From the NCBI GenBank assembly GCA_009869945.1, contig WIXG01000034.1, positions 186,001 through 250,000 on the forward strand: 64,000 nucleotides of DNA. Direction: 5' to 3'. The position numbers and the translations under genes are program-made. The notes beneath the pieces were generated by a model. It did not search any database and had not been told where the DNA came from. It saw only the letters and a program-made list of their open reading frames with translations. Numbering within the stretch: position 1 is the first letter of the stretch; each line of letters starts with the position of its first letter. Source of the DNA: Mesaphorura yosii. Taxonomy: Eukaryota; Arthropoda; Collembola; Poduromorpha; Tullbergiidae. Below are positions 24,244 to 47,229 of this stretch, piece by piece.

Positions 24244-27200
24244 AATTAAGTTTGCTAGATAATCAGTAGCTAAGATTTTCTACCACCCACTCGAAATAGG
24301 CTGGAAAAGACAAAGCGTATTCAGAGACAAACCAATAATTTTTGAGCTTCAATTTATCTATAAAATAGCAAATATTTATGCGAATGAGAATTCAGAATTA
24401 CGAACAGCGCTGAGCCGGAATTAATTCACCAGTCTCATTCTCATGTCATCGTCTTCTGCTACAAAGCGAATCTCGTTGACGTTAACTGTAAGTGTAAATA
24501 GCAATAGCAATACTTCTAACCTAGTTGTATTTGTATAGCTGTAAGCTTTGCCGCGTTTGGGATTGCATGGTTGTGCCATTAAGTAAATGCGTGCGAAAGT
24601 AATTGCGTGTAAGGCGGACTTTATGTCTTTGTGTGCCTTTCCACAGTTTCTTATTTCAGTCTGTAAATCTTTCCCGTTTTGTCTTCGAGAGTTGTGCTTT
24701 CATGAGCGTTTCGTGGATGTAATTAAAGTGACACTTTTCTACCGCTGCGGTAACAATAAGAGTCCTGCGTAACTTGCTGTGTGTTGGACTTATTGGATGC
24801 CAGATTATGTGAAGAAACTCAATTAGTCAGAATGTAAATATTTAGAGCAAGAATAGGGCTAGAATCTGTAGTAAATCTTAACTTAAGGGCAGGATTACAT
24901 TTGTAATCAACTACTAGACGATATTATTGGAGTTGGTCTATGTTTAATGGTATTGCAATTTTAGTGGCTAGACGAGTGTACTTTTGTCCGTTGTAAGATT
25001 TTATTTATTGGCGACATCTGAAAATTGCTATTAATTCTGGGGCAAGCTTTAGAACTGTACAGAATCACCTCTTTCACTGTAAAGCTATATTTTTCAGTCT
25101 CGTAGAACTGAAATTGGATTAGATTTAGTATAGGTTTTGAGCATTGAATTGTGTTGTAAGCTTTCACGTTAGGAGAAATCTCGAAATAAAAATTTACTGA
25201 ACTTGCCATCAGAAAACCGTTGCATTTTAAAATCATTCTAAACTATATGAGTCACTCATTCATGCGTCGCGAATTCATGCTGAGTTTGGCCACAGGCGCT
25301 TGTTTACCATTCAAACTGCGGGGCACAAGCAGACGAAATCTCCTCGGCCCGAGTTTCAGTGCCGCCCCTGAGCATTTAGTGCTTAATCCAATTAACACTT
25401 GCGCCTGCCTGAGTTAATTTCGCTTCCGCGTATGTGGAGCGACGATCCAGTTGGTGTACAAACGAGTTTGTTTGCATTCAGTGAAGCGATTGCGCTAATC
25501 TTCGGCGCGCTGCGCTGCTTTGCGAATGCGCCTGCGTGCACGACGATTCAATAATTATTGCACTGAAGCTAAAGTGTCAACACGAAATTTCTGCTGGGCA
25601 GTTCCAAAATACAAATCTGACGGTCCGAAGTGAAATTTAGAATCATCGAGTTGTCGAGTGAATTGCAACTTCCATTCGACAGACGCGACCAGAGTCCCGG
25701 AACCCTTTTCAACTATAATTGAACTTGTTGTAATGCAAATTGAACGTGCAATCTCTAATTGACAGTTTGTGTTAAAAAGAGAAGAGAAAAGAGAAGGGTA
25801 GCCAAATGCCAGATATGCCGACGCCGACAATAACAATATTCTATCCCCTTGCCTTCCCTTGTCTGGTGACATTGTTCAGCTTGTTCAGTATTCAATTCAA
25901 TGTCATATCTGTTCGGTACTGTGCAGTCGCGTAGCGATGTGCCTGTGAGACGGGAGATTTGGACTTGCCCTGCGCAGTATTCTTGTACAATGTTCACTTG
26001 AGTGAACTTTCGCATCCTATTATGGAATGAATTAAATAGTTATTATGGTTCATCTGAAGTCTAAAGGATAATAATAGAATTCAAAGTGAAAGGCTGCATG
26101 AATAGAAAAGGAAGAATCCACAAATGACAAAAGCGACGGATTTCGGGTCGGTAATGAAAAAGGGTTAACCCATATTTACATAAATTCAAATTCGGATAAT
26201 TCCTGCATTGGATGACTGTGAATGTGATGATTGTTGTCAACTGTCGCTCAGCTCACAATCATGCATGTGCCATTGTCACATTGTCAGCTTCTCATCGTAC
26301 CCGATCATGGAAGAGCTATTGAACAGCATCAGAACAACTGTCGGTTAGCAGCAGCGGGTCAGTTTCTCAAGTTTCTCGAACGTGTGCGTCGGGTTAAAAT
26401 GAAGTTCATCACTTTGCAAAATATTGATTCTAAGTTTCATGTAATATTAACCCACTTTATTCTGATCGAAAGCTTTCACCAGTCCAGTCCGCTGGTGAAA
26501 GATTAACTTTGGGAATGGCTACGCGAAATGTAATTCATGAATTTTTGATTTCTATGAGTTTCTTCACCTCGTATTCTTCGCGCATGCTTCTGGATTAACT
26601 ACAAACACCGGCAGTCCACTGCGAAGAGCTAGGACCATGGTATTGGACTCTTTTCTCCTAACAGCTCCCTGGGCCTGAACGCCTTGGCTGCATCAATACA
26701 ATCCTGTATTAACATGTCTTCAGTGTGCTTACGGATTCGTTCATGTCTGTGTCTCTTAAGCGTTAAGTAGGTGTGCTTAAGCGTTAAACAGCCGAAACAA
26801 ATGCGACGACTGCTTCATATGGCTGCTGGTTTTAAGATGGTTTGGTTTAAGATATGGTCATATGGTTTTAAAATGTGCTCAGGTTATTCATCGCTTGAAA
26901 TGGCGTATAAGATGTATTGATTTGAATTTCGGACGAATCCACGAGTCCTTTTCCATTAGTATATTTTCTCGGAGCTGGGGATTGGACGCTCTTTCCGGTT
27001 AGCAAGCCTTTACTGACAGCCACTGATGTAATTTCCAGGTAGCATCAATCGACATGTTAAGGATGATAAAGATCATACACATAATTGAGCAAGAGTGCAA
27101 TGCATTGCATTCATTGCTGGCGGCTAAGATTAAAAAGTGGAGTGGAAATTCTAAATCGCTAGCAGTGGCTACGGCGTGCAGCAAGCCTTATTTCAAGCAT

Positions 27201-29300
27201 TGGATGATTGAATCCAATTCCTGTGGATTACAAAACATCGCTTTTCCATTTAGCGTGGTTGTGAACCGATCCGCGGTGAATTGTGGATCCTGATCCGCAA
27301 GTTGCATCGCTGGCAGAGTGCGAGTGCAGTGCTCCTCCAGGATGACTATGAGATTAATTTTGTGCTGGAATGGCTGCTTGCTTTCGCGTGCTCGCGTCGC
27401 ACTTCTTCCTCATCTTTACGCTACTCACCCCGATGTCATGCAAAAAGCTTGCAGAAAAGTGCGTACGCCTTGCCCTGGAGTCGCAAACCTGAAACGAGCT
27501 GAGACCTTCAATTTATGAAGACTTTGAGAAAGTGGCGGCATTCATTGTTCGCCGTTCGTGAATCATGACCCTGGCTCTGATTCAGGCTCTGGAAACTCTG
27601 GATTCTCTTCATGTTTAATATAATTATTATTTTTTCTGCTTACGACTGCGGAAATCGTTATAAAACACTTGTCATCATTTTTCTTTTTAAAATTTTGAAG
27701 GAAACTGCTTACTGGGCATAAAAATGAGTCATTGATGATTATCTCATCTACTTTCCCAATTCTTCAGAAGTACAAGCTTCCAATCTCGATCCTGGCTTTC
27801 ACTATTCAAGGTTTTAGATTTAAGATGAAGTGCATTTTTCTCATAATAGAAACTAATTTCGCGGGTTCACAGTCCGCACGTGCTGTAATGAATCCACTTT
27901 TAATGGTTTTGTACGCCAGAACCGTGGTAGAAATTCAGACTTCGAATCAATCTGCCTTTCATTACATTGTGGATTGGATTGGAAAGAGTCCACGGAAGTT
28001 CATCCTCGACAAAAAACGCGTAGCGTAGAGATGCTTAGAGAACGCACAATTGACAGAAGAAGAGATGAAGTACCGCATGCATAACACAAACCTTTTACAG
28101 CGAAGAAAAGAGTTCATTTTCAAACGTTATTGTAAAACTCATTCAAGCATTTTAGCAAGTTCAGCACTATTATTGCTTTTCTTGGCCTCGCTTTCTCTTT
28201 CAGTTCCTTTCTCCCGTCGTGGAGCAGTTTACATCGTATTTCGCGTATTTTGAGGATCTTTATTGAAAAAAGAGGAAGTTACAAGATGAGGGTGAGAGGA
28301 AGCGTTTTTCTTATGTATACAACCACTCACGGCTCACCGTTCATGGCTGGCAACTGGCATGGCAAGCAATCGACGTCACAGGAAATCAACTAAGGCTAAA
28401 GTGCCCTGAGAACTTTACCGGGCTAGCGACCAGGATCGCATCATTATTCTGACATTCCATAACACGAACTCGAACTCAACTCGCATTGCGACATAAAATA
28501 AGTACGTAATAATTTCTCACATTTTTAATTTAAAGAAATCTGAACTTTTACGAATTATCCCGAATTTTTACGAGCTAAGAAGTTTCAGGACGGAGTCAAC
28601 GCCAGCGCCAGCAGATGATAACGATAAAGTCTTTTCTTGAATTGCCAGCGAACAATTTGCTTTCTGGATACTGGTGCTAGGCGTCTGTAACAATTGTGCG
28701 CCGCCGCTTTATCGGCTGGCCACGCCATTTTCATTACTGGGTCATCGGGTTCGGAGTTTAAACCAATCGCAATTCTGCAAACGATAATCTAAGTCAGCGT
28801 CAGAAGCAGCCGTTTCGCCATTCTGTTATGGTTGAATTAGATGCTGGCGAAGACGACGGTCAACCATTCAGTTCAAGTGTTATTGCTTCAAGAATGCGAA
28901 TTCCAGCTCGTAAAATATTATCGCTCCAATTTTTTCGGCAATAAAAATTCGGCAGAAAGTTTAGCACTTCTTGGACACATTGTTGCCATAATTCGATTGC
29001 TACTGAAGTTTTTTTGAATTGCACGAAAGTAAACAAACGGTGGACCAACCGTCTCACGCGTTTTCATTTGAAGTCAATCGCATTTTGCCCCACCTGAAAA
29101 ATACTCTACGCATTTGCATCTTCCGTTTCTTCAGTAATTTTAATTCACCGAACGGTGACCCTTGCCAATATGTACGAAAATTATTTACTGTGCGGCTGCA
29201 CGCGTGCCCGTGGTGTGATGGTACACATTTGCACTGGGAGCATGTGGACCGGTCTTCAGATGAGGCAGTACCAGTTTTATACAACTCTTTTTTATTGTAT
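24244..29300. other. Gene-free stretch between the klingon-like gene and the tRNA gene
   Basis: The first few hundred bases are presumably the 3' untranslated region of the klingon-like gene. In the rest only short, mutually overlapping open frames occur, none with exon-like borders or a recognisable product. No mobile element or clear repeat was seen. Confidence 0.55.
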
Positions 29301-29386
29301 GGTTCCGTAGTCTAGTGGTTATGACGCCTGCTTTACATCGCAGGTAAACTCGCAGGAGGTCCCCGGTTCGATCCCGGGCGGAACCA
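29301..29386 (+). tRNA. tRNA-Val (anticodon TAC) with a 13-base intron
   Basis: All cloverleaf arms can be drawn. The acceptor GGTTCCG (29301-29307) pairs with CGGAACC (29379-29385) before discriminator A. The D arm closes GTC/GAC, the T arm CCCGG/CCGGG encloses TTCGATC, and the anticodon stem is CCTGC (29327-29331) with GCAGG (29352-29356). The anticodon is TAC at 29334-29336. The intron, 29338-29350, lies at the canonical place one base 3' of the anticodon. Its GTAAA (29344-29348) is complementary to the anticodon-loop TTTAC (29332-29336), the anticodon-intron pairing usual for eukaryotic tRNA introns. Without the intron the tRNA is 73 bases and closely resembles animal tRNA-Val(UAC). A T7 run at 29393-29399 is the Pol III terminator; the A and B boxes are internal. 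Confidence 0.95.
29338..29350 (+). other. tRNA intron
   Basis: Thirteen bases between tRNA positions 37 and 38. It starts with TCGCAGG, and the same seven bases recur at 29350-29356 spanning the intron/3' exon border, so the 3' strand of the anticodon stem (GCAGG) is present twice, 12 bases apart. Confidence 0.85.
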
Positions 29387-29392
29387 GGAATG

Positions 29393-31846: not shown

Positions 31847-33053
31847 CGAAATCTCGACGTTTTGACTAACACTGGTTATTGGAATTATATTCTACGTTAA
31901 TCAATTACCAACTACATTCACTGACGCAAATGAAAGTGAAAAACATACACCATATTTAAAGAACGAAACGAGAAGACCTCGTGTCTCGCGTGTGGTTATG
32001 AATTGAAACCGCAATTACGTTTACGGAGGAATGTTCACGCATATCATGTTCCATGTGTGATCAAATGATGACAATCTTACCACAGTTGCGCGATGTCCGT
32101 TTTAACATTCAACTCGTAGTCGTGCGTTACACTGACCAATTACGATCCGGTTTTCTTCAGCATTGTATTGCTGATTGTTGATTCCTACGCATGGTCGTAC
32201 GAATTTAGAAGGATGAGTAAAGCTGACGAAATTAATTCACGAATTTCACTTTCACGATCAGACGATGCCACAACCACTACCACTCAAATGCACTGAAAAG
32301 AATGCAAGAATTTATAAATAGTTAAAATTAGGCCAGCTGTTGTCGCATAAGTAAACGACACATGTGGAGAATGATTAACGAATGAAGTTAAATAAGTATC
32401 ACGCCGGGCACGGAGTGACAACAGGACATGACGGGACTTACCATCACCGTTAATTTCTCATGGGCAGATGACGTAATTGCAAGATGTGCTTACAGTTGGC
32501 CAGTTGATCGAAAACCACAAGCACACCTCAAAAGCAGACCAGTCAAGTATCAATGTCAGCACTTAATCCTCACTAATCTCCGCCTACTCCAAATTCCCAG
32601 AATTGCTTGGTGCTAATGATGAGCATGTGCTCTGCCACCGTAGCTTTCACAGGTTAAAAATAAGCGATCAAGACAATCGAATCGAATTTGCAAAAACTGT
32701 CACATGTACTCGCAGTTGGTAGTTCATTCCGTTTATTATTGGCAGTGCACTTTCAGATTTGCATGAATTGCATAGCACGCGTTTGTATGAAATCCTTGCG
32801 CCTGTCTCTTGCCAAATCATCACCCGCATAAACGTAAATATAAATTTACAGCCTGTCATTAATATTCTTCTAAGGTTAGAGTAACCGAATTTAATTAATT
32901 GAATTTGCATTTAAGTCATTCTTTATTTGAGCTATTCATTCCACATTAGATTAGAGTTACCAGGTTCCAATCAGGAGTCGTACGTAGTGTGTTGAATCCG
33001 TGTTCCATCGAATTTGGCTTCACAAAAAACATTTCTATACTTAATTCATCAAA
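31847..33053. other. Intergenic region between divergent WARS1 and YIF1
   Basis: About 1.2 kb separating the two start codons, expected to hold both promoters and 5' untranslated exons, including a possible WARS1 leader exon. I see no TATA box I would defend and no coding exon. Confidence 0.5.
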
Positions 33054-34519
33054 ATGTACAGCGATCACCAAAACGACTGGGGCCAGCCAGCCCAAGACCC
33101 TTACTACTATTACAATTCAGCGAGTGGTACATACCCGGCGGCAGCAAGAGGTGGAGGTCCTCCTCCCCAGGGTGGTGATGCTCCCGGATACTTCGGCGGC
33201 CAACCGCCTTACGGTCAACAACAGCAAGGTGCTGGTGGAGGCGGTGGTGGATTCTATAATCCAATGAATAACCCTGCATTCAACCCGGTCTTCACGAATA
33301 TGGCGAAACAATATGGAGAATCAATGATTGGGCAGGGCAAGGAAATGGTCGATGAGAAGCTGCAAAAGTTCGTCACTGTCTCAAAGCTGAAGTACTACTT
33401 TGCCGTTGATACGGCGTACGTATTCAAGAAATTAGGCCTGTTGTTGTTCCCGTTTACGCATAAGGTAAGTTGATTCTGTTCTGAACCATGTCGGCAATTT
33501 CTTAGTCATCTTCTCCGTCAATTGACGCCATTTTGTAATGGAATTTCAGGATTGGTCAATTCGATTTGACAAAAATGAAGATAATGCTGTACAGCCTAGA
33601 AATGAAGTCAATGCTCCAGATTTGTACATACCACTCATGGCCTTCATCACGTTCATACTTGTGGCTGGAGTGTGTTTGGGTATGCAACAGAGGTAAGTGA
33701 ATCTGTGAACCCTTCGGGTGCTGTCAGCCCAGTTTATTAGGAGTTGTTTTAGAAGTTCTCAGGCGAATTATCTTCAGATAATTGTTTCCATGCAATTATT
33801 CCAAGAGAAAGTATTTCGGCCAAATTGTTTCCAGACAATTGTTTCAATGAAATTGTTTCAAGAGAAAGTGTTTCCGAACAATGTTCTCAACACGTTTTTA
33901 GGTTCAACACATCTTGAACCCGAACCACATGCTTGATATTGATTTGACGCTTTGTAATCTTATCGATTTGACAGATTTTCACCTGAAATACTCGGAATGC
34001 AAGCTAGTTCAGCTATGGGATGGTTGATTCTCGAATTGATGCTTTTTCTTGGTTCCACGTACATCATCAATACAGATCTTAAAGCATTTGATCTAATGGC
34101 ATTCTGTTCGTATAAGTTTGTTATGTAAGTTTCTATTTCTAAACATCTTCTATTCACAATTGACTTATTGACTAATTCCGGTTGTTTATTCTATAGAATG
34201 ATTCTTTCTCTGTTGGTGTGCATCGTGCTTGGGAAGACTGGGTATTACGCAGTTCTTATTTATGGAAGTTTGTCATTAGTAACTTTCTTGGTAAGTTGAA
34301 AATGTGGAACTAAAACTGCTGATTACATCGCTAAATATTGGTTAACTTGAAAATGGTTTTGTGCAGATTCGAACTCTGAAGGTGCAAATCTACAGCGTAA
34401 CTTCCCATGAGCATGTCGTGAGCGGCAGTAACAAGCCGAGGTTGTACTTACTCTTGTCACTGGCTGGAGTGCAGCCGCTGCTGATGTGGTGGCTAACGTA
34501 TCATCTTGCGAGATGGTGA
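33054..34519 (+). CDS. YIF1: YIF1 (Yip1-interacting factor) membrane trafficking protein
   Basis: Five exons: 33054-33464, 33550-33692, 33975-34124, 34197-34290, 34367-34519, giving 316 residues. The N-terminus is a Gly/Pro/Gln-rich cytoplasmic segment. It is followed by the YIF1 core, with [40 protein letters not shown] and [17 protein letters not shown], then five predicted membrane segments ending in [19 protein letters not shown]1 pairs with YIP1 in ER-Golgi and intra-Golgi membranes and supports vesicle traffic. Paralogues 1A and 1B of vertebrates cannot be told apart here. The second intron (282 bases) is larger than its neighbours and holds a 57-base tandem duplication. An AATAAA signal lies at 34677-34682. 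Confidence 0.95.
33775..33888 (+). repeat. 57-base tandem duplication inside a YIF1 intron
   Basis: Two adjacent copies (33775-33831 and 33832-33888) align end to end without gaps at roughly four bases in five; both contain CAAGAGAAAGT near the middle. They account for much of the extra length of this intron. Confidence 0.8.
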
Positions 34520-34676
34520 TTTACACGGAGCCGACATCGGTGTCATCAATGAGTGTAATTGTGGAGGAGGACGAATCGACGACTGAAACATCCAATGCGA
34601 CTATGCTCCTAACTAATTTAGAAAAAACACTAACTATTTAATTACCATATGCAATTTTTCTGTTTAATACGCTGCA

Positions 34677-34682
34677 AATAAA
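34677..34682 (+). promoter_or_regulatory. Poly(A) signal of YIF1
   Basis: AATAAA about 158 bases after the YIF1 stop codon; the first canonical hexamer downstream. Confidence 0.6.
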
Positions 34683-35083
34683 ATTAGTAGAATGCTTCCG
34701 GAACTGAATTTGGGCTTTCGCCAACGCCTCTACATGTGCTGCATTGTCACCCATGTTATGCTGCTTTGAAGAATTCAACAATTTAGAATAAGCACATGCC
34801 ACTAAATCCATACAAATGCGACAGGGGCCTTTTAACTTTCTTTTCCACTTGTCCACATATTGTAGAGCAAACTTCAAAGTACTGGTCAATAACAAATATT
34901 CTCATTCAAGAAATGAAGCGCGAGAATCCTTCACTCAGCTGTCACGCCGTGTGTGTGCAGTCCTAACTGGTCAATCGCAAGTCTACTGAATATTTTCTCT
35001 TACAATCAATTTACCTGTCTAATGAAGTCTTTGGTTTGATTCTTTCATCATTTGAACAATTTCAAGATTATTTCGAATATGAC
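34683..35083. other. Spacer between YIF1 and HDAC8
   Basis: About 400 bases with no exon I can support; expected to contain the HDAC8 promoter and 5' untranslated region. Confidence 0.5.
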
Positions 35084-36874
35084 ATGGATTCCAACTCCGC
35101 GCCGTCAAGCAACGAGAATGAGAATAAGAACAAGTGCACTGAGGTCGCGTACGTTTTTGATCATGACCTGGCGAAAGAGTTGGACAAAGTACACCCAATT
35201 AAGAAACGCGTAAGGGTCAAAGTTTCGCAGTTTGTTCCCGTCGACGGCGTCAGTCATTTCATTGTGTCATTGCTATTGTTTATACAGGCGTTCGTCGTCC
35301 ACTCATTGATTGAGGCGTACGGTCTAATGAACTCCGTGAAAGTTTTACCGTCGATGCTGGCCACGGATGAAGACTTGCTCTCCTTCCATTCTCGGTCCTA
35401 CTTGGAGTATTTGTCATCATTTGGCACAAACTCAGACACGGAACAAAGCACTGAGATAGATGAAGAGAACAGTGACGAGGAGGCAGCCGATAATGAGTAT
35501 GGGATCGGTAAAATCTGTGTTCTTTGACTTCTTTTGGTTTCCAGGCGTGTTCCTCATGCGGGTAATCCGTGATTAGGTTACGATTGTCCATCCTTCAAAA
35601 ACATGGGAAAGTTTGCTTCAAGAATTGTCGGCGGAACGCTGGCCGCAGTGGAGGCCATTTTGAGCGGCTCTGCTTTGATTGCGATTAACTGGTGTGGAGG
35701 ATGGCACCATGCCCAAAGGTAAGCCAAGGCTATCCGAAGTTCGACAAGATTCAAGATGTTTAAAGAAATTTTGTCTTTCATAACAGGGATGAAGCAAGTG
35801 GGTTCTGTTATGCTAATGATATTGTGATTGGAATTCAGAAACTTCAAAGTGTCTTTGCCAAAATTCTCTACGTGGATTTGGACGCGCATCACGGTTAGAA
35901 TTGTGGAACTGCAACGAACCAAAAAGTGGAGAATCACAAGTGTTTCCATTTCTATGTTCCATACAGGTGATGGAGTTGAAAATGCATTTAGCTATAGCAA
36001 GAAGGTTTTCACGTTGTCCTTTCACAACTTTGAGCCAGGCTATTTCCCAGGAACAGGAAATATTGGGGATGTGGGATTTGGTCGTGGAAAATACTATGCG
36101 GCTAATTTACCGTTGCATGGCGGCATTAATGACGACGATTTTGCGCATCTTGTTACACAGTAAGTTCCCTGCAGTCTGTGGCTCCGTGTTCGAGGTGGAT
36201 GGAATCTGTCTACGAAGTCATAGTCATGCTTTCACTGCTGCAGGTCGTTGAAGATTGTCATGTCAAAATTTAAAGCGGAGGCTGTCGTTGTTCAGTGTGG
36301 AGCAGACTGTCTCGCCGGAGACCCTCTTGGAAATTCCAACTTGACTGAGATTGGGTTGGGAAAAAGCGTCAACTCAGTTTTGCAGTACAAGCTGCCAACA
36401 GTATTTCTGGGAGGAGGTACGACTTGTGATGGAAGTTGGATACATTTTTACACTTTAACTTTAATTTTACATTTATGACTGAAATAGGTGGATACAGTGT
36501 GCCAAATACCGCAAAGTGCTGGACGTACTTAACATCAGTAGTACTTGGACAATCTCTGTGCGCTGACATCCCAGAGCATCATGTTAGATTAAAATTCTTA
36601 TCTCATTTGAATAATTTTGAAAACGTTGGCATCTAATGGAACCATTTTTTTTGTTCTGTGTTAGTATTTCGAATTGTATGGCCCAGATTTTAATTTGCGA
36701 ATTACACCATCACTTCGGAAAAATTGCAATTCAACTGAATACTTGAGGGTCATCTTGAAGCAGATGCAAGGTAAGATGAGGAGATTACTGTCTCTGTCAA
36801 CTGATATCCATGAAGGGATACAATAATTAATGAATCTTTTCTCAGAAAACGTGAACAAAATCAAAACTACGTGA
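35084..36874 (+). CDS. HDAC8: Histone deacetylase 8
   Basis: Class I zinc-dependent lysine deacetylase; in animals it deacetylates the cohesin subunit SMC3. Nine exons: 35084-35209, 35288-35507, 35577-35718, 35787-35893, 35967-36159, 36244-36416, 36488-36582, 36665-36770, 36846-36874, giving 396 residues. The catalytic parts are all present: the double-His WHHAQRDEASG, zinc ligands in [12 protein letters not shown] and GADCLAGDP, and the transition-state Tyr in GGGGYSV. The HDAC8-type opening [12 protein letters not shown] and the end [16 protein letters not shown] distinguish it from HDAC1/2/3. Two departures from the human protein are visible. The serine that human HDAC8 carries in RASMVHSL (Ser39, a known PKA site) is Phe here, and the loop before YGIGYDCP carries an enlarged Glu/Asp/Ser-rich insert. 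The ATG at 35084 is the first in-frame ATG. Confidence 0.95.
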
Positions 36875-37064
36875 GGAGACCGAGATTAGACTTTGGAACT
36901 TCGACGAAAGTTACTGTGATTGTAACCTTGGAAGACCGTAAACGTGTTACCACTTGCACTCGATTTGATGCTACCAGCTTATATTCTTGATACCGCGATT
37001 AAACTTTCCAATTTGCTACATTGTTGGTACTCATTTTCTTACTCTGCATTTCGTTCATCTTGAA

Positions 37065-38833
37065 ATGGCAACGTCCGCCAAACAAAATAAATGTGCGCTA
37101 CACGAGCTTAGCACTAACAATATCTCGGAGGTCAATGAAGAACGCCCGAAAGCCAAAAAGGCCAGAAGACGTTTGCAGAGCAATCTAATCCATCCGTCCA
37201 CGGCAGCAGGCGCAGGCAACACTACTTCTCGAGACGCTCAAAAGGACCTGGAAGTCCTTTTCAAGCCTACCGTGAAGGACTTGGTTGCTCTCCATATCGC
37301 AGATATGTGTCAACGTTCATCACGATTAACAATTGAAGACTTGAGAAAGTCTGGTGCAAAGTTTGAGTCCTCATCTTCGTCTGAAGATGGTGAACACGAC
37401 ACAGAAACAGACATGACTTTTTGCGTGAGTGAAAAATCATTCACTGAGTGGGCCTGAATTCTTACTTTAATTAAGTTATTTAATTTCCTTGCACGTGGAC
37501 TTGTTGAAAGTGCTGCGGCAAGTCCATCAAGTATGAGATAGATGACAGATTTGACGATAACGCGTTTCGGGCGCATTTCATGTCGAAAACTATGCTCATC
37601 ATGGCGGCTACCCTTGTGGTGCCGATAGTCTGGAACATGTATGTTCTTTTCAAGTGAGTCGAGGGCACAGGGCGAAAATCGCATGGCTCAAATGACTACA
37701 ATGACGCATTATTATTTGTATTTTTCTTTTACAGTAAAGGCACGCGTATTTATTTCATGGAAGGTATTGAATTGAATGCTGCTATATCTGGGCAAGTACA
37801 AGTTGCTAGATTTAAAACCTAGCTTTAGAAATTTTTTGTAATACATCCATTTATTCGCATTCAGAATTTTCATTTTGGGTTTGAATATTGCCGTTAGAAG
37901 AATGAAGCTTGGGATCGCGATAAATGTCGTGTACATGCTTCGTGTATGTTTCCATTTCCGATTCATACTTCATTTGACGATATTGTGACTGGCGGATGGC
38001 AATCGGTGAATTGCTGCGTGATTTTGATTGCAGTCGTTCGCCCTGGCCTTCACGCTTACATCATTGACATCGTACACCGAACTTTTAGTGCTGAAATGTG
38101 CATTCGAATCTCCTTACGTCCACATTCAAGGTAATTCAATCTAGGAATGGAGCCAGATTATGGAGCTATCTATTTGTATAAAACACAGATCCTGCTCAAG
38201 ATCGGTATAAGTTGATGATGAGCATAAAAAATAGTGATGGCAGGGCTATAAATGCCACTACAACTCCCGAGCCTGAAACAGCCACTCATGGCGCGCAATT
38301 ATTCTTGCATAAGCTTCCTGTGCTTTGGCTCATTGTATGTGTTGTAGTATTTCTGAACTGGGCCAGCATTGGGCTGATTTTACGATGTCTGAATGTGGAC
38401 AAGGTGAAGGACTCGTCATTAATAGAAAAGGCCACGTGACGTGATTTTCGGCGAACAGAGTGATTTTTAATACAATGAAATGATTTTTAGACTGAGCCGA
38501 ACGGAGTCTGGATGTTTGGCGTTGGATCCGTTCTTGGGTTTCTGGCGACCATCATGACGTTCGTTGTGCTTTTGATGCTGGATTATGGCCAAGGTCCCAG
38601 AGTATGGGATTTGACTCAAGTGTTCGCCGTCGGAGTGTTAACAATCGTTGAAGCTCTTGTAAGATTTGAGATCATGAAAACCTTATCGATCTCAGAGCAA
38701 GAACCTTTCGTCTGTTAATTGTTTTTGTATTTCGTAGTGGCTACCTGTACGATGGAAGCGTTTGTTCGAAGGCAAAACCATGAAATTGGGCGAGTCAGAT
38801 TATTTCAATGTAGCTGGAAGATTCTCGATATAA
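37065..38833 (+). CDS. Multi-pass membrane protein of unrecognised family, copy 1
   Basis: Eight exons: 37065-37424, 37511-37653, 37735-37791, 37865-37943, 38034-38130, 38189-38403, 38491-38658, 38738-38833; total 404 residues. The first 120 residues are charged, Ser/Lys/Glu-rich and probably cytoplasmic, ending in an acidic Ser run and Cys-Cys-Cys. About six hydrophobic segments follow: around TMLIMAATLVVPIVWNMYV, ELNAAISGIFILGLNIAV, the span over SFALAFTLTSLT, LPVLWLIVCVVVFLNWASIG, GVWMFGVGSVLGFLATIMTF and LTQVFAVGVLTIVEALWL. The loop before segment 4 has a potential N-glycosylation site (NATT). Intron 3 has a GC rather than GT donor (37792-37793). I do not recognise the family. The next gene downstream is a diverged paralogue, and the gene starts only 190 bases after the HDAC8 stop. 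The donor after exon 6 (GTGAAG) is weak and needs a transcript. Confidence 0.7.
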
Positions 38834-39123
38834 CGTACGACATGCTGAGAATAAAAGCTGCCATTTTATTGAGCTCTTCTGTTTCTGTAAAAGCCCCCAC
38901 TTCGTTGCGAGTCTCCTCATTTGCCTCATTTTGCTACGTTCCTTCAGTTCACAAATTATATGGCAACAATTGTAACTGACTGAGATAATGATACAGAAGT
39001 TCTCAGTTTGTCAAGACTCATGTGCGGAAGTCAACACTCGAACAGCATTTTCGTGGTTTCAATTTGTTACAAAATTCAGTCGAAAAGACTTTCAATTAAC
39101 TTGACGTAATACTCGATATTGAA

Positions 39124-40761
39124 ATGGAGAATCGCCCTCCATACACGCCCTCATACCCGAGCGGCCAGCAAGACGGGGACGACCTGAAAGAATTTCATTC
39201 ACGGGTGAAAGAACGGGCAAAACATGGCCTGGATAAACAGAGATGTCAGTCTTTATTTCATGACCTGCAAGACACAATTGTGGACGCAGCTCATGAGGAG
39301 ATTGTAAACAGAGGAGCGGTGGCGAACGAACTGATCGAAGAGATTGACAGGCAAGTGCAGGAGGAGTACAAACGACGGAAGAAGAAACGGACCGCCACAG
39401 GTTTTTGGGTAATGAACTTTTCGCACGAATCTTGCTCGGGCCATGTGCACAATTATCGCACGGTCCTCACATTTCTCGCGACAGATATTCGGACATCACA
39501 AAAAGCAGGACATGGCACCCGGATTTCTAAACCCGGACCTGTGTTCCAAGTTTATCAGCAAGATCTTGTCAATTATGATAGCAAGGCAATTAATTCGGCA
39601 GCCTTGCCTCAGTCTATTTCTTCTCTAGTACGTCTAAATCGTAGAGGATGACATGAATTCTTCACTCTTGGCTGCATTAATTTTCTTGTATTTTCTAGCA
39701 AGCCATTACACGATTGGTTCTTTGGTGAAGTAATGCGCCTTCAGCCCATTTTGTTGGCTGCGTAAGAACAACAGTTTCATTATTGAATAGGAAATACGCT
39801 ACTGCATCTAGATTTGATAACTTTTGTGCAGGGGAGTCTACGCTATGTTTTTCCTGATATCTCACAGCAATAAAATAACAGCGCTAATTCGGAGGTACCA
39901 ACTTCATGCAATCCTATTCATCTTGTCGGTAAGCGTCAGTATTCAGACAGTTGGCGCTGTGACTCTTGTCCGCATGCCATTCTGTAACCCAAATCAATAT
40001 AGGAAATTACGTTGGGAGTGGTTTGGTGTTTTGCTGCCTTCCTCCTTGAATACGGCGCATTTCGATGGTACGGAACATTGGACACATTCAACGACTACGA
40101 CGAGGACGAGATTCACAATCGGAATAATTGGAGACAGCTGAAACTTACGCCTCCCGTGTTTCTCATCATATACGACCTACAAATTACTGTCAATGTAACT
40201 GGAGCTCTGCTACTACAAACTTTCACTCCGGTAAGATCGCGTTTCAGGTCTCACCGTAGACCTCAGCACAGGATGATGTTACATTCAGCGATGCAATGTG
40301 AAAGCAACGTGACAGTTGATGAGGACTTGTATTCTCTCCAGATTCACATCGGAGCACACGAACTCTATCGAATTATGATTTGGCTGAGCTTTCTCACGTT
40401 TATTCTCTCCTTCCTCGTCATCTTCACAACAACGTACGGATTGATTCCGATCTGGGGTGGGACATGTGATGAATTTTAGGAGGCAGACTTCTCAATGAGA
40501 GAATATGAAGCTATCTTACTTTTTATGTGATTTCAGACGGATTTCAGTCTGTACTCGGGACAATGGCGGGACTGGGGAAAAGTTGGGTAAGTGAAGACAC
40601 CGGGGGCCGTGGGTTGAAAAATGCAAAAATACAATGCTTCGGACAATTTCATGTTACAGATATTTTTGTACAAAATCTCAAGACTAATGTCCGGAAGAAT
40701 GGTACCGATAAGCTCCATGGATTGGAACGATGTGTTTTACGCTGCTTACGTAGTTTTCTAA
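39124..40761 (+). CDS. Multi-pass membrane protein of unrecognised family, copy 2
   Basis: Eight exons: 39124-39408, 39485-39627, 39699-39761, 39832-39928, 40003-40230, 40342-40456, 40537-40586, 40660-40761; total 360 residues. A 95-residue charged N-terminal region (with KRRKKKR) precedes about six hydrophobic segments, including PILLAAGVYAMFFLI, HAILFILSEITLGVVWCFAA, PPVFLIIYDLQITVNVTGAL and RIMIWLSFLTFILSFLVIF. Exon 2 is 143 bases in both this gene and copy 1, and introns 1-4 have the same phases (0, 2, 2, 0). The stretch FLTFILSF with a later W...SRLMSGR aligns with FLATIMTF with a later W...KRLFEGK of copy 1. The end of exon 6 is the least certain border (40456 or 40465). No known family is recognised; a receptor, transporter or channel-like role cannot be chosen from the sequence. 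Confidence 0.65.
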
Positions 40762-41820
40762 GACATTTTGACATTCCAGACAGTCGAAACTGTTTTCAGC
40801 CTAGAAAGAGTAGATGAGACAATTCTGGGGAAATGGAGTGTAAAATGATCTTTGCACGTTCGCTTATTCGCTTTGTAGTTTTGTGTATTTTCATTAAGAC
40901 CTCATGACAAATTAAAGTTGACTTGTTCGAGTTCGAGGGCTTGGACTTGACTACGAAAGATGAAATTACATGGGGAGGTAAAATTTATCCCCGATTCGAG
41001 ATTCAGCTACGAGCAACGTAGTGAAAGTTCTTTCTTTGCTTGCTAGTGTGTTTAATGCAAGTGATGTGAATCTGAGCGAAGTGAGTTCGAGTTCGGATTT
41101 CATTTCGAGTCGAGATCGGAATACCATACATATTTCACCACACACGAACAGAAAGCTCGAATATTTACGTGTACAAAAGGATAAGCGAATGTTGCACAGA
41201 TGCCACAGAACGGCAGATCATGTTCTGATTGGCGGCTGCTGCAATAAACCACAATCTTTATTATTCTTGTTTATTATTCGCATTTGTATTGAAAATTTGT
41301 ATTTGTAAACGTCGCAGCGAATTTCATCTCAGTTAGCGAATGATTATCGTGATCGTTTCGGTTTGACTTTAACTCGCAATCTAATTTTTAATGTTTAGAT
41401 GGTTATTTTGTATTGCGGTTCAGTGTTTTTAGTTCAATGTGATCTGTGATTCAAAATCTTGGAAATATTCCTGAAGTTCTACGGTCGATGATGCTTACAT
41501 GTGCGTTGTACGTCGAAGAGCCAAGATAAGCCCTTGGAGCTAGGAATTGTCGAACATTTGTTAATGGACAGTTCGAAATGTAAGTAAAGACCACTCGAAT
41601 ACGAAAGCTGTAGTTGTTGGAATAACTGCAGTGCAGTCCCATTCCATTCCCAATTTGCTAATCATTTGATTCTGCATTTGTTTAGGAAAGAACAAATCAC
41701 TTCATGATATTTGGTAGCCGACACCGAACAGAAAAATACGTAAGCGATCTGAAAAGTTTCCAATTAGCGAAACGAAACGGCAATTGCAAGTCATTCTTTA
41801 TCTCCAAAATTAGATACACA
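40762..41820. other. Spacer between membrane protein copy 2 and NFRKB
   Basis: About 1 kb. An ATG at 41704 is in frame with the NFRKB start used here and would add 39 residues. Otherwise I see no exon. Confidence 0.5.
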
Positions 41821-44800
41821 ATGAATCAAATCGACGGAATCGAACACGTGCTGATTGGAAATTGGCATGCACGCCTTCCCTCAGCCATCTGTACTGATCC
41901 AGCAATTTTTAATTCCATTTTCTCGATCAACACCTGGGAAAATGTTCTAAAACCTGAATCTAAGCAAAGAATTTTGGTAAGTTAAATGAAGGCTTGTCAC
42001 TTGCCATCACTGTCACAACTCATAAACTCATTACTCATAGCTAATGTTGCTCCCATGTGTCATTGCAGCAAATGCTTCCAAAAGAAATCCAAAGCTGTCA
42101 AGGCCTCGGTGTGCAGACAATTCATGATTTGCTTTCTGGGGAATTGTCCAGGTTCAGCTCGACACCATTAGAGACTTTCTTTAATCAACTGGATGGGGGT
42201 TTATTTGAGCCAAGCGTCGTTCCAACAAAAGAAGCAATCAAAAAGGTGTGGAGGAAAGACACGAAGCGGATCATCAAGAAATGTCAAATTAAAGTTTTAC
42301 AAGAACTTCTTGTGTCAACTACAAAATACTTCGAGGAAAACTTTCCATCAAAAGAAATTCAAAGCAATGGCATCGGACCACACAATTCACTAATATCCAA
42401 ATCTGGCAAAGACCCGGCGACATCTGTAAATGGGGTAATACCTGCGAGGGTCAACACTGTAAACCCGAATATATCTGATATCGAAAATGAACTACAGAAA
42501 CGTGCAAGAAAGCGATTCGTTTCTGAATTGTCTGAAATTGATACTCAAGGCAATTGTGCGAGCTCTGACGATGAAGAGTTTCCAGGTTGGTAACACAAAG
42601 AGTTACTTTTCTGATCATATTTAGTGACTGATTTTATGCTTTAATTTGATTACAGTTACAAAGAAACCAACGCGTCACACTTTCCGAGGAGACCTGAAGA
42701 AGCATTTAACAGGAAGAACAAACCAAAGTAGGGAAACCTTTTTGAAGAAAAAACTGGCTGATCATTACGGTCGATCTGCTGGCGTAGGGAAACAACAGAT
42801 ACAGGCTCAACAGCATCCGACAGAGACACCTGCTTCGGCGTCTTCAGCCACGAAACCTGTGTCAAGGCCGACCACGCTGAAGTCGCGAGAGGAGCAAACC
42901 GCGGCTCAAATGGCTAAGTTTCCTAAAATCTTACCAGCTCCTTCAGTCGTTTCACCGACCGAAATTAAAGCCGCTATTGGAAACGAAGAAACAAGTGTCA
43001 AGATTCCTACTGCTTCCACGAGCTCTCAGTTCAAGAACTCTCCCTTACTCGCATCACAGCTACAGGCACCGATCATTTCATCCAAGAAGCATGGCAGCAA
43101 CCAATCAGAGATGCAATTAGCGAACAGAGTGCTGATGCAGTCCAATACTAGTTCAAGCTTCATGCATTCACCGTTTGGTATGTCTGTTGTTGACGAGATG
43201 GAAAGCTCTTCCGATGACGAATTTGAATCGATTGAGCCTACAATTGGATTTGCATCAAATGCGAATTTGTCTGGATCAAGAAACTTTTCGCCCAAGACCG
43301 GCACGAAAGGATCAAAAGGTTTGGGTCGAAATCTTCAACCACATTCTAAAACAAAAGGCAAGTATACTAGCAAACAATCCATATCAAACGCTAAATTGGC
43401 CACAACCGTTGTAAGTGTTCAAAATACAAGCTCCACCAGCACCGTCAATTCTTCGTCAGCTGTGAGCATCGCCGCCTCCAGTACAGACAGCACCAGCCAA
43501 GCACCAACGTTATTCGGATTTACTCCGACTCCGACAAGTAGTACAACAGCTGTGAAGTTCGAAACGCCTCCAATCCTTCTTACCAGTGGCAGCAGTGTAA
43601 GTACTAATCCTACCAGTGCGATCCTGGCTACTTCGTCCGGTGTCCAACCTGCAACTGCTCCTACAATTAAATTAACTCCAGGATTAGTAGCAAATACGCT
43701 GGGAAGCAACCGGCTTCTCTCTGCCCTGACGCCTGGCGTTGCTTTGCTGCCAGACGGGCAAGTGGGCAATCTTACTGCGAGACCAACACAATCCGGCACC
43801 AGCTTTAATATCTCGAATGCGACAATAGCGCCGGGAAGCTCAAATGTGCTTGTGTTAAATGGGCCATTGAAGAGCAACAACGAAGTCACGCAAAATGAAG
43901 CTGCTAAGAATCAGCCAGTTTTTCGAATACAGTGTGGCCCAAGCACGCAAACGTTTACCGCCAGTATGAGCATGAGCAGTGCGAGCACGCCAATTACATC
44001 GAAACAATATCTCCCTTCAAGAATCTCCGGCTCATTAGGATCCAGCGTGGTTTCGCCAAATACCTTGCAAGACCTTAACTTCAGTCTTAATTCTGATGGA
44101 AACGTTGTGCAAAGCAATACAAGTGCGGAGAAGCTTCTTTCTGAGAGTGCGGAAGATAAGATTGATGATTTATCAGTGCTGGATGGCAATCCGTTCGACT
44201 CAATCCCAAACTTAAGTGATGAGTTGGATGGATTCGACTTGGACTTGGTCGAAGTCTGCGATTTTCAGTAAGAGATTACGTAAAAACGTTGATGTGCTCA
44301 TTCCTGTCGGTAACATTGAGCGAATTTTGTTTGAATTTTCTAGCTCACTTTTATCTGAAGAAAAACATTATGCCAGTTTCTTCTCCCTCATACGAGACGT
44401 TTTGTGTTCCACGAAGGACCATCGCATGACCTTCGTTTGCTTGGAGAAGACTATACGAAAGTGGTCTCTAAGTCCTTCTGCGCCCTCAAATACCTGGTTT
44501 ACACTAGTTAATGACTGGAATGAAGCTTTAAGTACTGCTTTAAATTTCTTAGCTGGAAACTACCAAGGTAGGTCATGTGAGGTTTTAGTGAAATCAGATC
44601 CCAGCACCACTGGACCATTCCAGCTTAAATGTTCACATTCCCCCTTACAGATGCTCATCCTGAGGATTTTGTTCCATATATTGAATACAAATACAAGACC
44701 AAATATTATCAAGTACGTTCCGATATATTCAATAGCTCGATTCATTCCTGCTTCTAATCAAATCACGTATTCCATATTCTAGTGGATTGGTGCCGGGCGT

Positions 44801-47229
44801 GACAGTGATAATAACATGCTTCCACTCTGTAGCATGTGGTTAGAGAATTTAGGACGACTCCCTCCCATTAAGAAACTTGAAGCAGAACCCGACGAGCCTG
44901 AAGAAGACGACGAGGACAATGAAGATTCCGACAGTCCAGATGTTGAAGTAAAGAAAAGGCCTAAGCGCCCCATAACACCTCCTCCACCTCGCTGTGTGAC
45001 TACTTGGACAGTAAGACCATCGAATGATGAAGAAAGGGAGTACTTCCAAGAACAGGTTTGCTACAGTTGTAATTGTATCTCTGGCCAGGATTTTAGGAGG
45101 AATTATTTGTAACCCATTCTATTATCTAGGAACGTCAACGGTTTGAGAATCCTCACAAGGCTTTCACTTATCGGATGCATGACTATGAATCTGTAGTTGG
45201 ACCTGTGAAGGGAGTTTACTCAAGCCAAAGCGGAGTAACAAACAAGGCTAGGGGCCATTCTCTACTAATTGATGATCGACCACCATACGTGACGATTTTA
45301 GCTTTAGGTAGGTTACATGGTCTGAATAAGAAACTAAGAGTTCGCTTGGCAGTTCAACTTATTCAACTCTTAAATTCTGTTTCAAGTTCGCGACGCAGTA
45401 GCTCGTCTTCCAAATGGTGAAGGAACAAGATCTGAAATATGCGAGATGTTGCGCGACTCGGCATTTCTAGCACCGGAGGCTTCAAATATCACACTTAACA
45501 GCGTTGTGAGTGGGGCCCTTGACCGACTTCATTATGAAAGAGATCCATGCGTCAGGTATGATTCACATAAGAAGAACTGGATCTACCTGCACCGAGATCG
45601 GAATCAAGAGCAATTCGGTAAATTTCACAATTCAGAAAAGGTCCTATTGAAGATCATTCTTAAAGTGTGTCATGCTCTCTTGGTTTAGAACGTCTTCACC
45701 ATAACCGCAGTTACACAAAGTCAACCAAATCAAGGAGTAACACAACAAGAAAAGCCAGAAAGCACAATAAGTCGACATCCTCTTCAGGAAGTCAGGGACA
45801 TGGACAACTAGCAACTCCAAGTTCCTCTCCAACAACAAGCGATCAGTCTTCGTCTGCAACAACCTCAACTGTGTCCACAGTTAAACTGCCTCCAATCGAA
45901 ACCATGCTTGGGAAATCTGGGATTGCGTTGACCCAGTCTGGCAGGAGCCAACAGCTTCAGTCTGAGACTGCCATTTCAAAGCTTGTTCCACAGAGTGGAA
46001 ACCAGGCAATTAGTGCGTCTGGTGCGGTTGTTTCTAAGCCTACAGCCGCAGGGCCTACGACAACTCTGCTCGCTGCCCAACTTAGCAAGCCAATTGCCAA
46101 TAATAGTTCTACGCTTTTCCCTTCGACCATTCACGGCGCAGTAAAATCTACGGCGTCGACAATGACTATTGTTCCCACCCCTGCCTCTCAACCTAGTTCC
46201 GTCAGCGGCCCCACCGGGTAAATTGCTAACGACTACGGTATATTGTAAGAAAGGCTTGCGGCTTAGGTATAAATCACATCACGTGTTTCTTTGGGCAGGC
46301 AATTGATGCTGGGACCGAATGTTGTAAGATTTGGAGGCCCGCTCCGGTTTTCTCCAGTTCGGGTTCCTGCTTCCGTAGCCGGAGCCACAGCTGGTCTAAG
46401 ATTGTCACCAAGAATTGTTCTGAGAGGTGGTGTTCCAGGCCAAAATCAAGTAAGTTCCGATGGCTATTGTAAATTCTAAGCAACAGTGTTCCTTGCCATC
46501 ATCAATATTAATTTGGTTTGGTCTTCTTAACAGGGCATCATAGTCGGACAAACTCCTGATGGCCAAACAATCATATTTCAAGCAGCTCCGAGTTCTGGAG
46601 TTGGCACAATGCAAGTACAGCTCGCATCCGCCACAGGGCAAATGCAACCTGAGGCAACGAGTCAATCATTTGTTGTGACTTCGAATGTTTCTGCGCCAAT
46701 GATGAATGTCAACTCCAACATAAATAGCACTTCGAGCCCTCCAACTTCGACAGCTTTACCTTCAGTGGCCGTATTTCAAAATAGCACCAAATCCGTGCAA
46801 GATACAAACGTGATGTTAAAATTAGAAGCGTCAAACCCGCAGTCAAGCTCAAATGTCTCCAGTGTGTTGAATGTCAATCCACCACAGCAAGTCGTCAGTA
46901 TGTCGTCTCAGATATCTAAGCAATTGACCGCACTTACAACCTCTGGAGTGGGTCCCCAAACAAGTCCCATCATAATCAAGTCAAACCAGGGCAATTTTAT
47001 TGTACCTGCTCGTATATACGGAGCAGGACCTGTAGGAGGTAAGCCCAAGTAACAGTCTGATTTATGGAACTCGCTAATATTGTAATTGGTTATTGCAGAA
47101 TTTAAGATGGTTCCAATCCCTGGAGCGGGTAATCAAACGGTTTACGCCAGAATTGTTCCTCAATCTTCCGATCTCTCTTCAGTCCCATCGGTCAGATTCA
47201 TTACTCCGGATACACCTTCAAGTCAATAA
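41821..47229 (+). CDS. NFRKB: NFRKB, INO80 chromatin-remodelling complex subunit
   Basis: Twelve exons: 41821-41976, 42069-42585, 42656-44267, 44344-44567, 44651-44712, 44783-45055, 45130-45307, 45387-45617, 45689-46217, 46299-46449, 46534-47038, 47099-47229; total 1522 residues. The N-terminus (INTWENVLKPESKQRIL, LETFFNQLDGGLFEPSVVPT) matches the DEUBAD region by which NFRKB binds and restrains the deubiquitinase UCH37/UCHL5. The winged-helix-like core is very well kept: HKAFTYRMHDYESVVGPVKG, RPPYVTILALVRDAVARLPN, GEGTRSEICEMLRDS and SGALDRLHYERDPCVRYD. Long Ser/Thr/Gln/Pro-rich, probably disordered stretches lie in exon 3 and the last third. Its role is nuclear, in INO80-type nucleosome remodelling. 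The start could instead be the in-frame ATG at 41704. Confidence 0.93.

What the first reader, a model, noticed from the sequence alone, without database searches (positions are those of the whole stretch)
37065..40761. Tandem pair of paralogous six-pass membrane genes with no recognised family
Seen: two adjacent same-strand genes, each with a charged N-terminal region of roughly 100-120 residues and about six hydrophobic segments. Intron phases 1-4 agree (0, 2, 2, 0), exon 2 is 143 bases in both, and exon 3 is 57 versus 63 bases. Both have a phase 0 intron after membrane segment 4 and another within a residue of the same place before the last exon. Sequence similarity is weak but collinear, e.g. 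FMSKTMLIM/FISKILSIM near the start and a W...RLxxGK/R motif near the end. Inference: an old tandem duplication in a fast-evolving membrane protein family I cannot name.
Basis: partly seen in the sequence, partly recalled or inferred. Interest (0 to 1): 0.75.

Follow-up and report, generated by a model that had tools for sequence, protein, structure and literature searches.

The report
Tandem pair of orphan membrane-protein genes
Two neighbouring genes in a small animal genome, probably an arthropod, look like old duplicates of one membrane-protein gene that no family library at hand recognises; this is a genuine but fairly ordinary kind of orphan gene pair whose job is unknown.

Summary
Gene A (37065-38833, 404 aa) and gene B (39124-40761, 360 aa) are open eight-exon same-strand genes. 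They look paralogous: the membrane-part score is reached by 4 of 2000 local and 1 of 2000 global ten-residue-window shuffles, and in a sequence-only alignment 4 of A's 7 introns have a same-phase B intron within one column (0 of 20000 random placements). Similarity sits in exon 2, A exon 7/B exons 6-7 and exon 8; exon 1 and the outer-loop exons show none. Topology looks six-pass with both ends inside, weaker for B. Pfam, NCBIfam and PDB sequences give nothing above threshold. No third copy was found, but the search with A does not find even B genome-wide. They are not recognisable gustatory receptors, though that is not excluded. 'Lineage-restricted new family' is untested: no eukaryotic collection was available and no structure was predicted. 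Function is inference: perhaps channel- or receptor-type subunits with a shared core and a diverged tail and outer loop.

The parts
37065..37424 (+). gene A exon 1: charged N-terminal tail, residues 1-120
   Evidence: ORF
37511..37653 (+). gene A exon 2 (143 bp): juxtamembrane part and membrane segment 1
37735..37791 (+). gene A exon 3 (57 bp): short loop and start of segment 2; followed by a GC-AG intron
37865..37943 (+). gene A exon 4 (79 bp): rest of segment 2, start of 3
38034..38130 (+). gene A exon 5: rest of segment 3, start of outer loop
38189..38403 (+). gene A exon 6: outer loop with an N-glycosylation sequon (N267) and segment 4
38491..38658 (+). gene A exon 7 (168 bp): segment 5 and most of 6 with YG..P..WD..Q between them
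38738..38833 (+). gene A exon 8: end of segment 6, short tail with RLFEGK, stop
38850..38855 (+). AATAAA shortly after the stop of A: suggests a separate 3' end
39124..39408 (+). gene B exon 1: charged N-terminal tail, residues 1-95
39485..39627 (+). gene B exon 2 (143 bp): juxtamembrane part and segment 1
39699..39761 (+). gene B exon 3 (63 bp): short loop and start of segment 2
39832..39928 (+). gene B exon 4 (97 bp): rest of segment 2, start of 3
40003..40230 (+). gene B exon 5 (228 bp): rest of segment 3, acidic outer loop, segment 4; counterpart of A exons 5+6
40342..40456 (+). gene B exon 6 (115 bp): segment 5; with exon 7 (165 bp together) counterpart of A exon 7 (168 bp)
40537..40586 (+). 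gene B exon 7 (50 bp): most of segment 6
40660..40761 (+). gene B exon 8: end of segment 6, short tail with RLMSGR, stop

Best explanation
Two genes descend from one ancestor by an old local duplication, and both still encode open frames. Each protein crosses a membrane six times with both ends in the cytosol (predicted): a charged tail of 95-120 residues, segment 1, a short outer loop, segments 2 and 3 joined by a short basic inner loop, a longer acid-rich outer loop between 3 and 4, segments 5 and 6 joined by a short loop carrying YG..P..WD..Q, and a short tail carrying RLxxGK/R. Most likely mode of action (inferred): channel- or receptor-type membrane subunits, in which a shared core (segment 1, segments 5-6 and the tail just after 6) does the common job while the cytosolic N-tail and the 3-4 outer loop, which have diverged past recognition, give each copy its own regulation or partner. 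Shown by the calls: open spliced frames, similarity and intron agreement beyond chance, no match in the libraries searched. Inferred: topology, membrane location, function. My odds: coding genes 0.95, paralogy 0.93, six-pass 0.75, channel/receptor type 0.3.
For: Complete spliced frames with usual splice sites; synonymous codon choice above the non-coding expectation (z 2.1 for A, 4.5 for B); AATAAA after A. Paralogy: BLASTP E 0.001 for the single pair; shuffles 4 of 2000 local and 1 of 2000 global in ten-residue windows, 2 and 1 of 2000 in five-residue windows; 4 of 7 introns matched against 0 of 20000 random placements; A-B z 4.8 while A against 5 same-genome gustatory receptors lies between -0.49 and 0.24. 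Where similarity lies: exon 2 z 3.65, A7/B6+7 z 3.68, exon 8 z 2.37; exon 1 z -0.57, A5+6/B5 z -0.28. Topology: basic loop after segment 2 in both, basic tail after 6 in A above all, 7 acidic residues in the 3-4 loop of each, a sequon at A N267.
Against: Codon bias is weak: A's mean score per codon is still below zero, and a first, cruder codon score did not separate the frames. Identity is only 21%. One A intron needs a GC donor. B scored z 3.6 against one of five gustatory receptors, and in a translated search of the window alone B's match to A's exon 7 (E 0.34) only ties two other places, 5059-5232 and 7747-7971, so the sequence evidence is not proof by itself; the introns carry the case. 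At zero tolerance only 1 intron matches (P 0.046). B segments 1 and 6 are weak, B has no sequon in its 3-4 loop, and the charges beside segment 1 and in the 4-5 loop favour neither side. Nothing in the sequence names a substrate, pore or ligand.
Confidence: 0.6

Rival explanations
1. A and B are cryptic members of the insect gustatory/odorant receptor superfamily of seven-pass ion channels (GR, GRL, Grl).
For: Length 360-404 aa, predicted cytosolic N-terminus, a phase 0 intron just before the last exon, as in Gr genes (PMC7746228, PMC9998090, passages read); the genome has many Gr-like stretches (84 rows at E 0.1 or less); B against one of five receptors z 3.6, and true receptor pairs of this genome can score no better: 3 of 10 receptor-receptor pairs have z below 2. 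PMC9998090 says most Grls lack a recognisable TM7 motif and that predictors miss TM7 in some.
Against: No 7tm_7 match at E up to 10 for A, B or the four trimmed pieces given (HMMER filters drop most matches above 0.1), whereas same-genome receptors ring. Six segments; the 27-30 residues after segment 6 hold no clear further segment (19-residue maxima -0.25 and 0.8) and no TYhhhhhQF motif by eye. The longest loop is predicted outside, not inside. Profile comparison with five receptors: probability 0.3%.
Confidence: 0.1
2. They are diverged members of an ordinary conserved membrane family whose profile is too far to detect from two sequences. This is compatible with the duplication itself.
For: Only single-sequence and two-sequence searches were possible; sensitivity is low: A as query does not find B genome-wide at E up to 10.
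Against: Pfam-A, NCBIfam and PDB sequences give only sub-threshold matches, different for A and for B.
Confidence: 0.35
3. Two unrelated membrane genes lie side by side and look alike by chance and by shared hydrophobicity.
For: Exon 1 and the A5+6/B5 pair show no similarity; exons 3 and 4 little (z 1.0 and 0.6). B scores z 3.6 with one receptor and ties at E 0.34 with two other places of the window.
Against: Shuffles that keep composition in 5- or 10-residue windows rarely reach the A-B score; matched intron positions and phases; exon lengths in register 143/143, 57/63, 168/165, 96/102.
Confidence: 0.05

Closest known systems
Insect/arthropod gustatory receptors and gustatory receptor-like proteins (7TMIC superfamily)
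   Same: About 350-500 residues, N-terminus predicted inside, great sequence divergence, phase 0 intron before the last exon.
   Different: Six rather than seven segments by hydrophobicity, no TM7 or its motif seen, longest loop outside, no profile match.
Multi-pass orphan gene pairs in invertebrate genomes in general (recalled, no call)
   Same: Local duplicates, open, no family match.
   Different: Whether these two are lineage-restricted at all was not testable.

Membership tests
7TMIC (GR/OR/GRL) | seven membrane segments | tested here: not met
   six in A, five to six in B; no clear segment in the last 27-30 residues; hydrophobicity scales only, and PMC9998090 warns that TM7 can be missed
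7TMIC (GR/OR/GRL) | intracellular N-terminus | tested here: inconclusive
   charge distribution mostly favours it; no experiment
7TMIC (GR/OR/GRL) | TM7 motif (T/S)Yhhhhh(Q/K/E)(F/L/M) | tested here: not met
   not seen by eye in either C-terminus; definition from PMC7746228, which calls it diagnostic but not definitive
7TMIC (GR/OR/GRL) | intracellular loops longer than extracellular | tested here: not met
   longest loop between segments is the predicted outer 3-4 loop in both, 58 and 37 residues by my boundaries
7TMIC (GR/OR/GRL) | 3' phase 0 introns | tested here: inconclusive
   last intron phase 0 in both, and the one before it in A only, but no TM7 exon follows
7TMIC (GR/OR/GRL) | 7tm_7 profile match | tested here: not met
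   none at E up to 10
7TMIC (GR/OR/GRL) | Orco-like fold with anchor domain | not tested
   no structure was predicted
any Pfam-A family | score over the gathering cut-off | tested here: not met
   best E of the six queries 0.033 to 0.47, all under cut-off
A and B as one paralogous pair | sequence similarity beyond hydrophobicity plus shared intron positions | tested here: met
   see the Against line

The most novel reading that the evidence does not exclude
A previously undescribed arthropod membrane-protein family with its own six-helix architecture, kept as a tandem pair that works together as two different subunits of one channel or receptor.
Probability: 0.12. Interest if true: 0.6.

Novelty: new member of a known kind. 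Interest (0 to 1): 0.3.

Why it matters
If the pair proved to be a new fold or a paired channel/receptor of arthropods it would add a gene family to a group with many orphan genes. As it stands it is a supported pair of orphan paralogs, of a sort common in newly sequenced invertebrate genomes (recalled), and its main use is as a seed for an ortholog search.

Tried and rejected
Family libraries: Pfam whole and trimmed, NCBIfam trimmed, PDB by single sequence and by two-row profile: chance-level rows only. Third copy: protein searches of the genome with A, B and a 90-residue piece of B found A and B themselves plus one E 3.96 row, which read as noise with stops. A translated search of the window alone (the flank loci had not been read in) had rows at E 0.34-0.77 at 5059-5232, 7747-7971, 24332-24496 and 60818-60991 that I took for chance and did not follow up; over the window plus 200 kb of flank no row outside A and B was below E 1. 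Two motif patterns gave 1 match (gene A itself) and 0; B itself cannot match, since an intron splits its motif. Relatives in viral and prokaryote contigs: 87 and 256 pattern matches, none confirmed; the patterns came mostly or wholly from exon 1, which is not conserved, and these collections are not where an animal family would be sought. Gustatory receptor origin: tested and disfavoured, not excluded. Shared 9-mer TTGAAATGG at both start codons: rejected as evidence, since it occurs 7 times in the window against 1.14 expected. First codon score was uninformative, perhaps because of its training set; the synonymous score replaced it. Literature: searches gave no paper; one listing (tomato russet mite genome); one search listed 8 of 13, the receptor papers among them; two listings, neither on such a family by title and start of abstract. 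Attempts to name the organism: COX1 search gave no match, rRNA search gave no answer (repeated once), odorant receptor family no match, with no positive control ringing.

Structure prediction was not run.

Full report
What is there. The window lies in contig C34 of a 93,006,257-base genome in 1127 contigs. Gene A and gene B lie head to tail on the + strand. Of 10 open frames of the window given to Pfam, 5 matched a family: upstream of the pair a histone deacetylase gene (one of its two stretches over the cut-off; it looks like HDAC8 to me, recalled) and further up YIF1; downstream a gene with the NFRKB second winged helix domain. Rebuilding the exons from splice sites gives A as eight exons, 1215 coding bases with stop, 404 residues, and B as eight exons, 1083 bases, 360 residues. 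Introns are 58-111 bases, all ending AG, 13 of 14 starting GT, one GC. An AATAAA lies at 38850, just after the stop of A, which suggests that A ends before B starts. Synonymous codon choice exceeds what non-coding triplets would give for the same proteins (z 2.1 and 4.5), though A's mean score is still below zero and an earlier, cruder score did not separate the frames. The chance of no stop in so many codons is 2e-9 (A) and 2e-8 (B) at the non-coding stop rate, but I chose exons partly for openness, so these figures are generous.

Are they paralogs. BLASTP of the pair gives E 0.001 for a single comparison, over 68 columns. On the membrane part, local score 64 is reached by 4 of 2000 shuffles that keep composition in ten-residue windows and 2 of 2000 in five-residue windows; the global score by 1 of 2000 in each. 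As a control with same-genome membrane proteins, A against five gustatory receptors gives z -0.49 to 0.24; B gives -0.62 to 0.91 with four and 3.6 with the fifth; A-B gives 4.8. In a translated search of the window alone, B's match to A's exon 7 ties two other places at E 0.34. So sequence alone is not conclusive. The introns carry the case: in a global alignment made without knowledge of introns, 4 of A's 7 introns have a B intron of the same phase within one column, against 0.15 expected and 0 of 20000 random placements; at zero tolerance only 1 matches (P 0.046), at five columns 5 match (P 5e-5). Exon lengths agree in register: 143/143, 57/63, 79/97, 97+215/228, 168/115+50, 96/102, which, if they are paralogs, implies at least two intron gains or losses since the duplication.

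Where they are alike. Exon by exon against full shuffles: exon 2 z 3.65 (4 of 2000), A7 with B6+7 z 3.68 (5 of 2000), exon 8 z 2.37 (44 of 2000), exon 3 z 1.01 (338), exon 4 z 0.58 (541), A5+6 with B5 z -0.28 (1171), exon 1 z -0.57 (1420). So the conserved part is the entry to the membrane with segment 1, segments 5-6 with YG..P..WD..Q, and the RLxxGK/R tail. The tails at the N-end share charge, not sequence.

Topology. Kyte-Doolittle finds six segments in A at 1.3 or more and five in B, whose first is just at 1.3; the sixth of B shows at 0.97, and A has one more weak stretch in its tail at 1.0. Basic residues lie after segment 2 in both and after segment 6 in A above all; the 3-4 loop has 7 acidic residues in each and a sequon in A only; the charges beside segment 1 and in the 4-5 loop favour neither side. 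On balance this fits both ends in the cytosol. It is a prediction from hydrophobicity and charge, not from a trained predictor.

What family. No Pfam-A, NCBIfam or PDB sequence match above chance for the queries given, nor for the two-row profile against PDB. The same genome gives 84 rows for the gustatory receptor family at E 0.1 or less, with frames ending in TYAVIILQF (L043) or near variants of the receptor motif (L020, L021, L042, L044; read), so the method can ring in this genome. The receptors, with no odorant receptor match (no positive control), suggest a non-insect arthropod; this is inference and the species is not known to me. Against the criteria in PMC7746228 and PMC9998090 (passages read), A and B meet length and, by prediction, N-terminus inside, and have a phase 0 intron before the last exon; they do not meet seven segments, the TM7 motif or longer inner loops. 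A receptor origin is not excluded: 3 of 10 receptor-receptor pairs of this genome score below z 2 themselves.

Other copies. Protein searches found A and B and one noise row, a translated search of the window plus 200 kb of flank found no other row below E 1, and motif patterns found only A. But A as query did not find B in the genome at E up to 10, so a third copy as diverged as these two would be missed. The scans of viral and prokaryote contigs were empty and say nothing about animals.

How it probably works. From two sequences I can say only that the core segments named above have been held and the outer loop and N-tail have not. That pattern suits a membrane subunit whose core does a shared task and whose tail and outer loop have taken on separate regulation or partners. 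A channel or receptor is my first choice at about 0.3; a transporter, scaffold or lipid-handling protein is not excluded. I saw no pore, catalytic or heme motif by eye; no call tested this.

Verdict. Real, correctly described in nearly all points, paralogous on the evidence, unrecognised in the libraries at hand; novelty beyond that could not be tested. Tandem orphan membrane paralogs are a common kind of gene in invertebrate genomes (recalled), hence interest 0.3.

Noticed in passing
G000 contigs, e.g. L020, L021, L042-L044: A sizeable gustatory receptor repertoire (84 rows at E 0.1 or less), many rows lying in one open frame of over 400 codons.
   Followed up: partly
window 37418-37517: Gene A carries FCCCG across the exon 1/2 junction, three cysteines ahead of segment 1, which might be lipid-modified; gene B has no cysteine there.
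   Followed up: no
window 37792-37864: Gene A intron 3 appears to be a GC-AG intron while the matching intron of B is GT-AG.
   Followed up: partly
window, 7 places listed: The 9-mer TTGAAATGG occurs 7 times against 1.14 expected (0 of 100 shuffles reach 7), two of them at the start codons of A and B.
   Followed up: no
window 29300-29387: A tRNA gene (Rfam 59.9 bits) for which ARAGORN reports a four-base anticodon, perhaps because of an intron.
   Followed up: no
window 5059-5232 and 7747-7971: Two + strand places whose translations match B's segments 2-3 at E 0.34 in a window-only search; probably chance.
   Followed up: no
window 33045-45685: Neighbours on the + strand: YIF1, a histone deacetylase and an NFRKB homologue.
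   Followed up: partly
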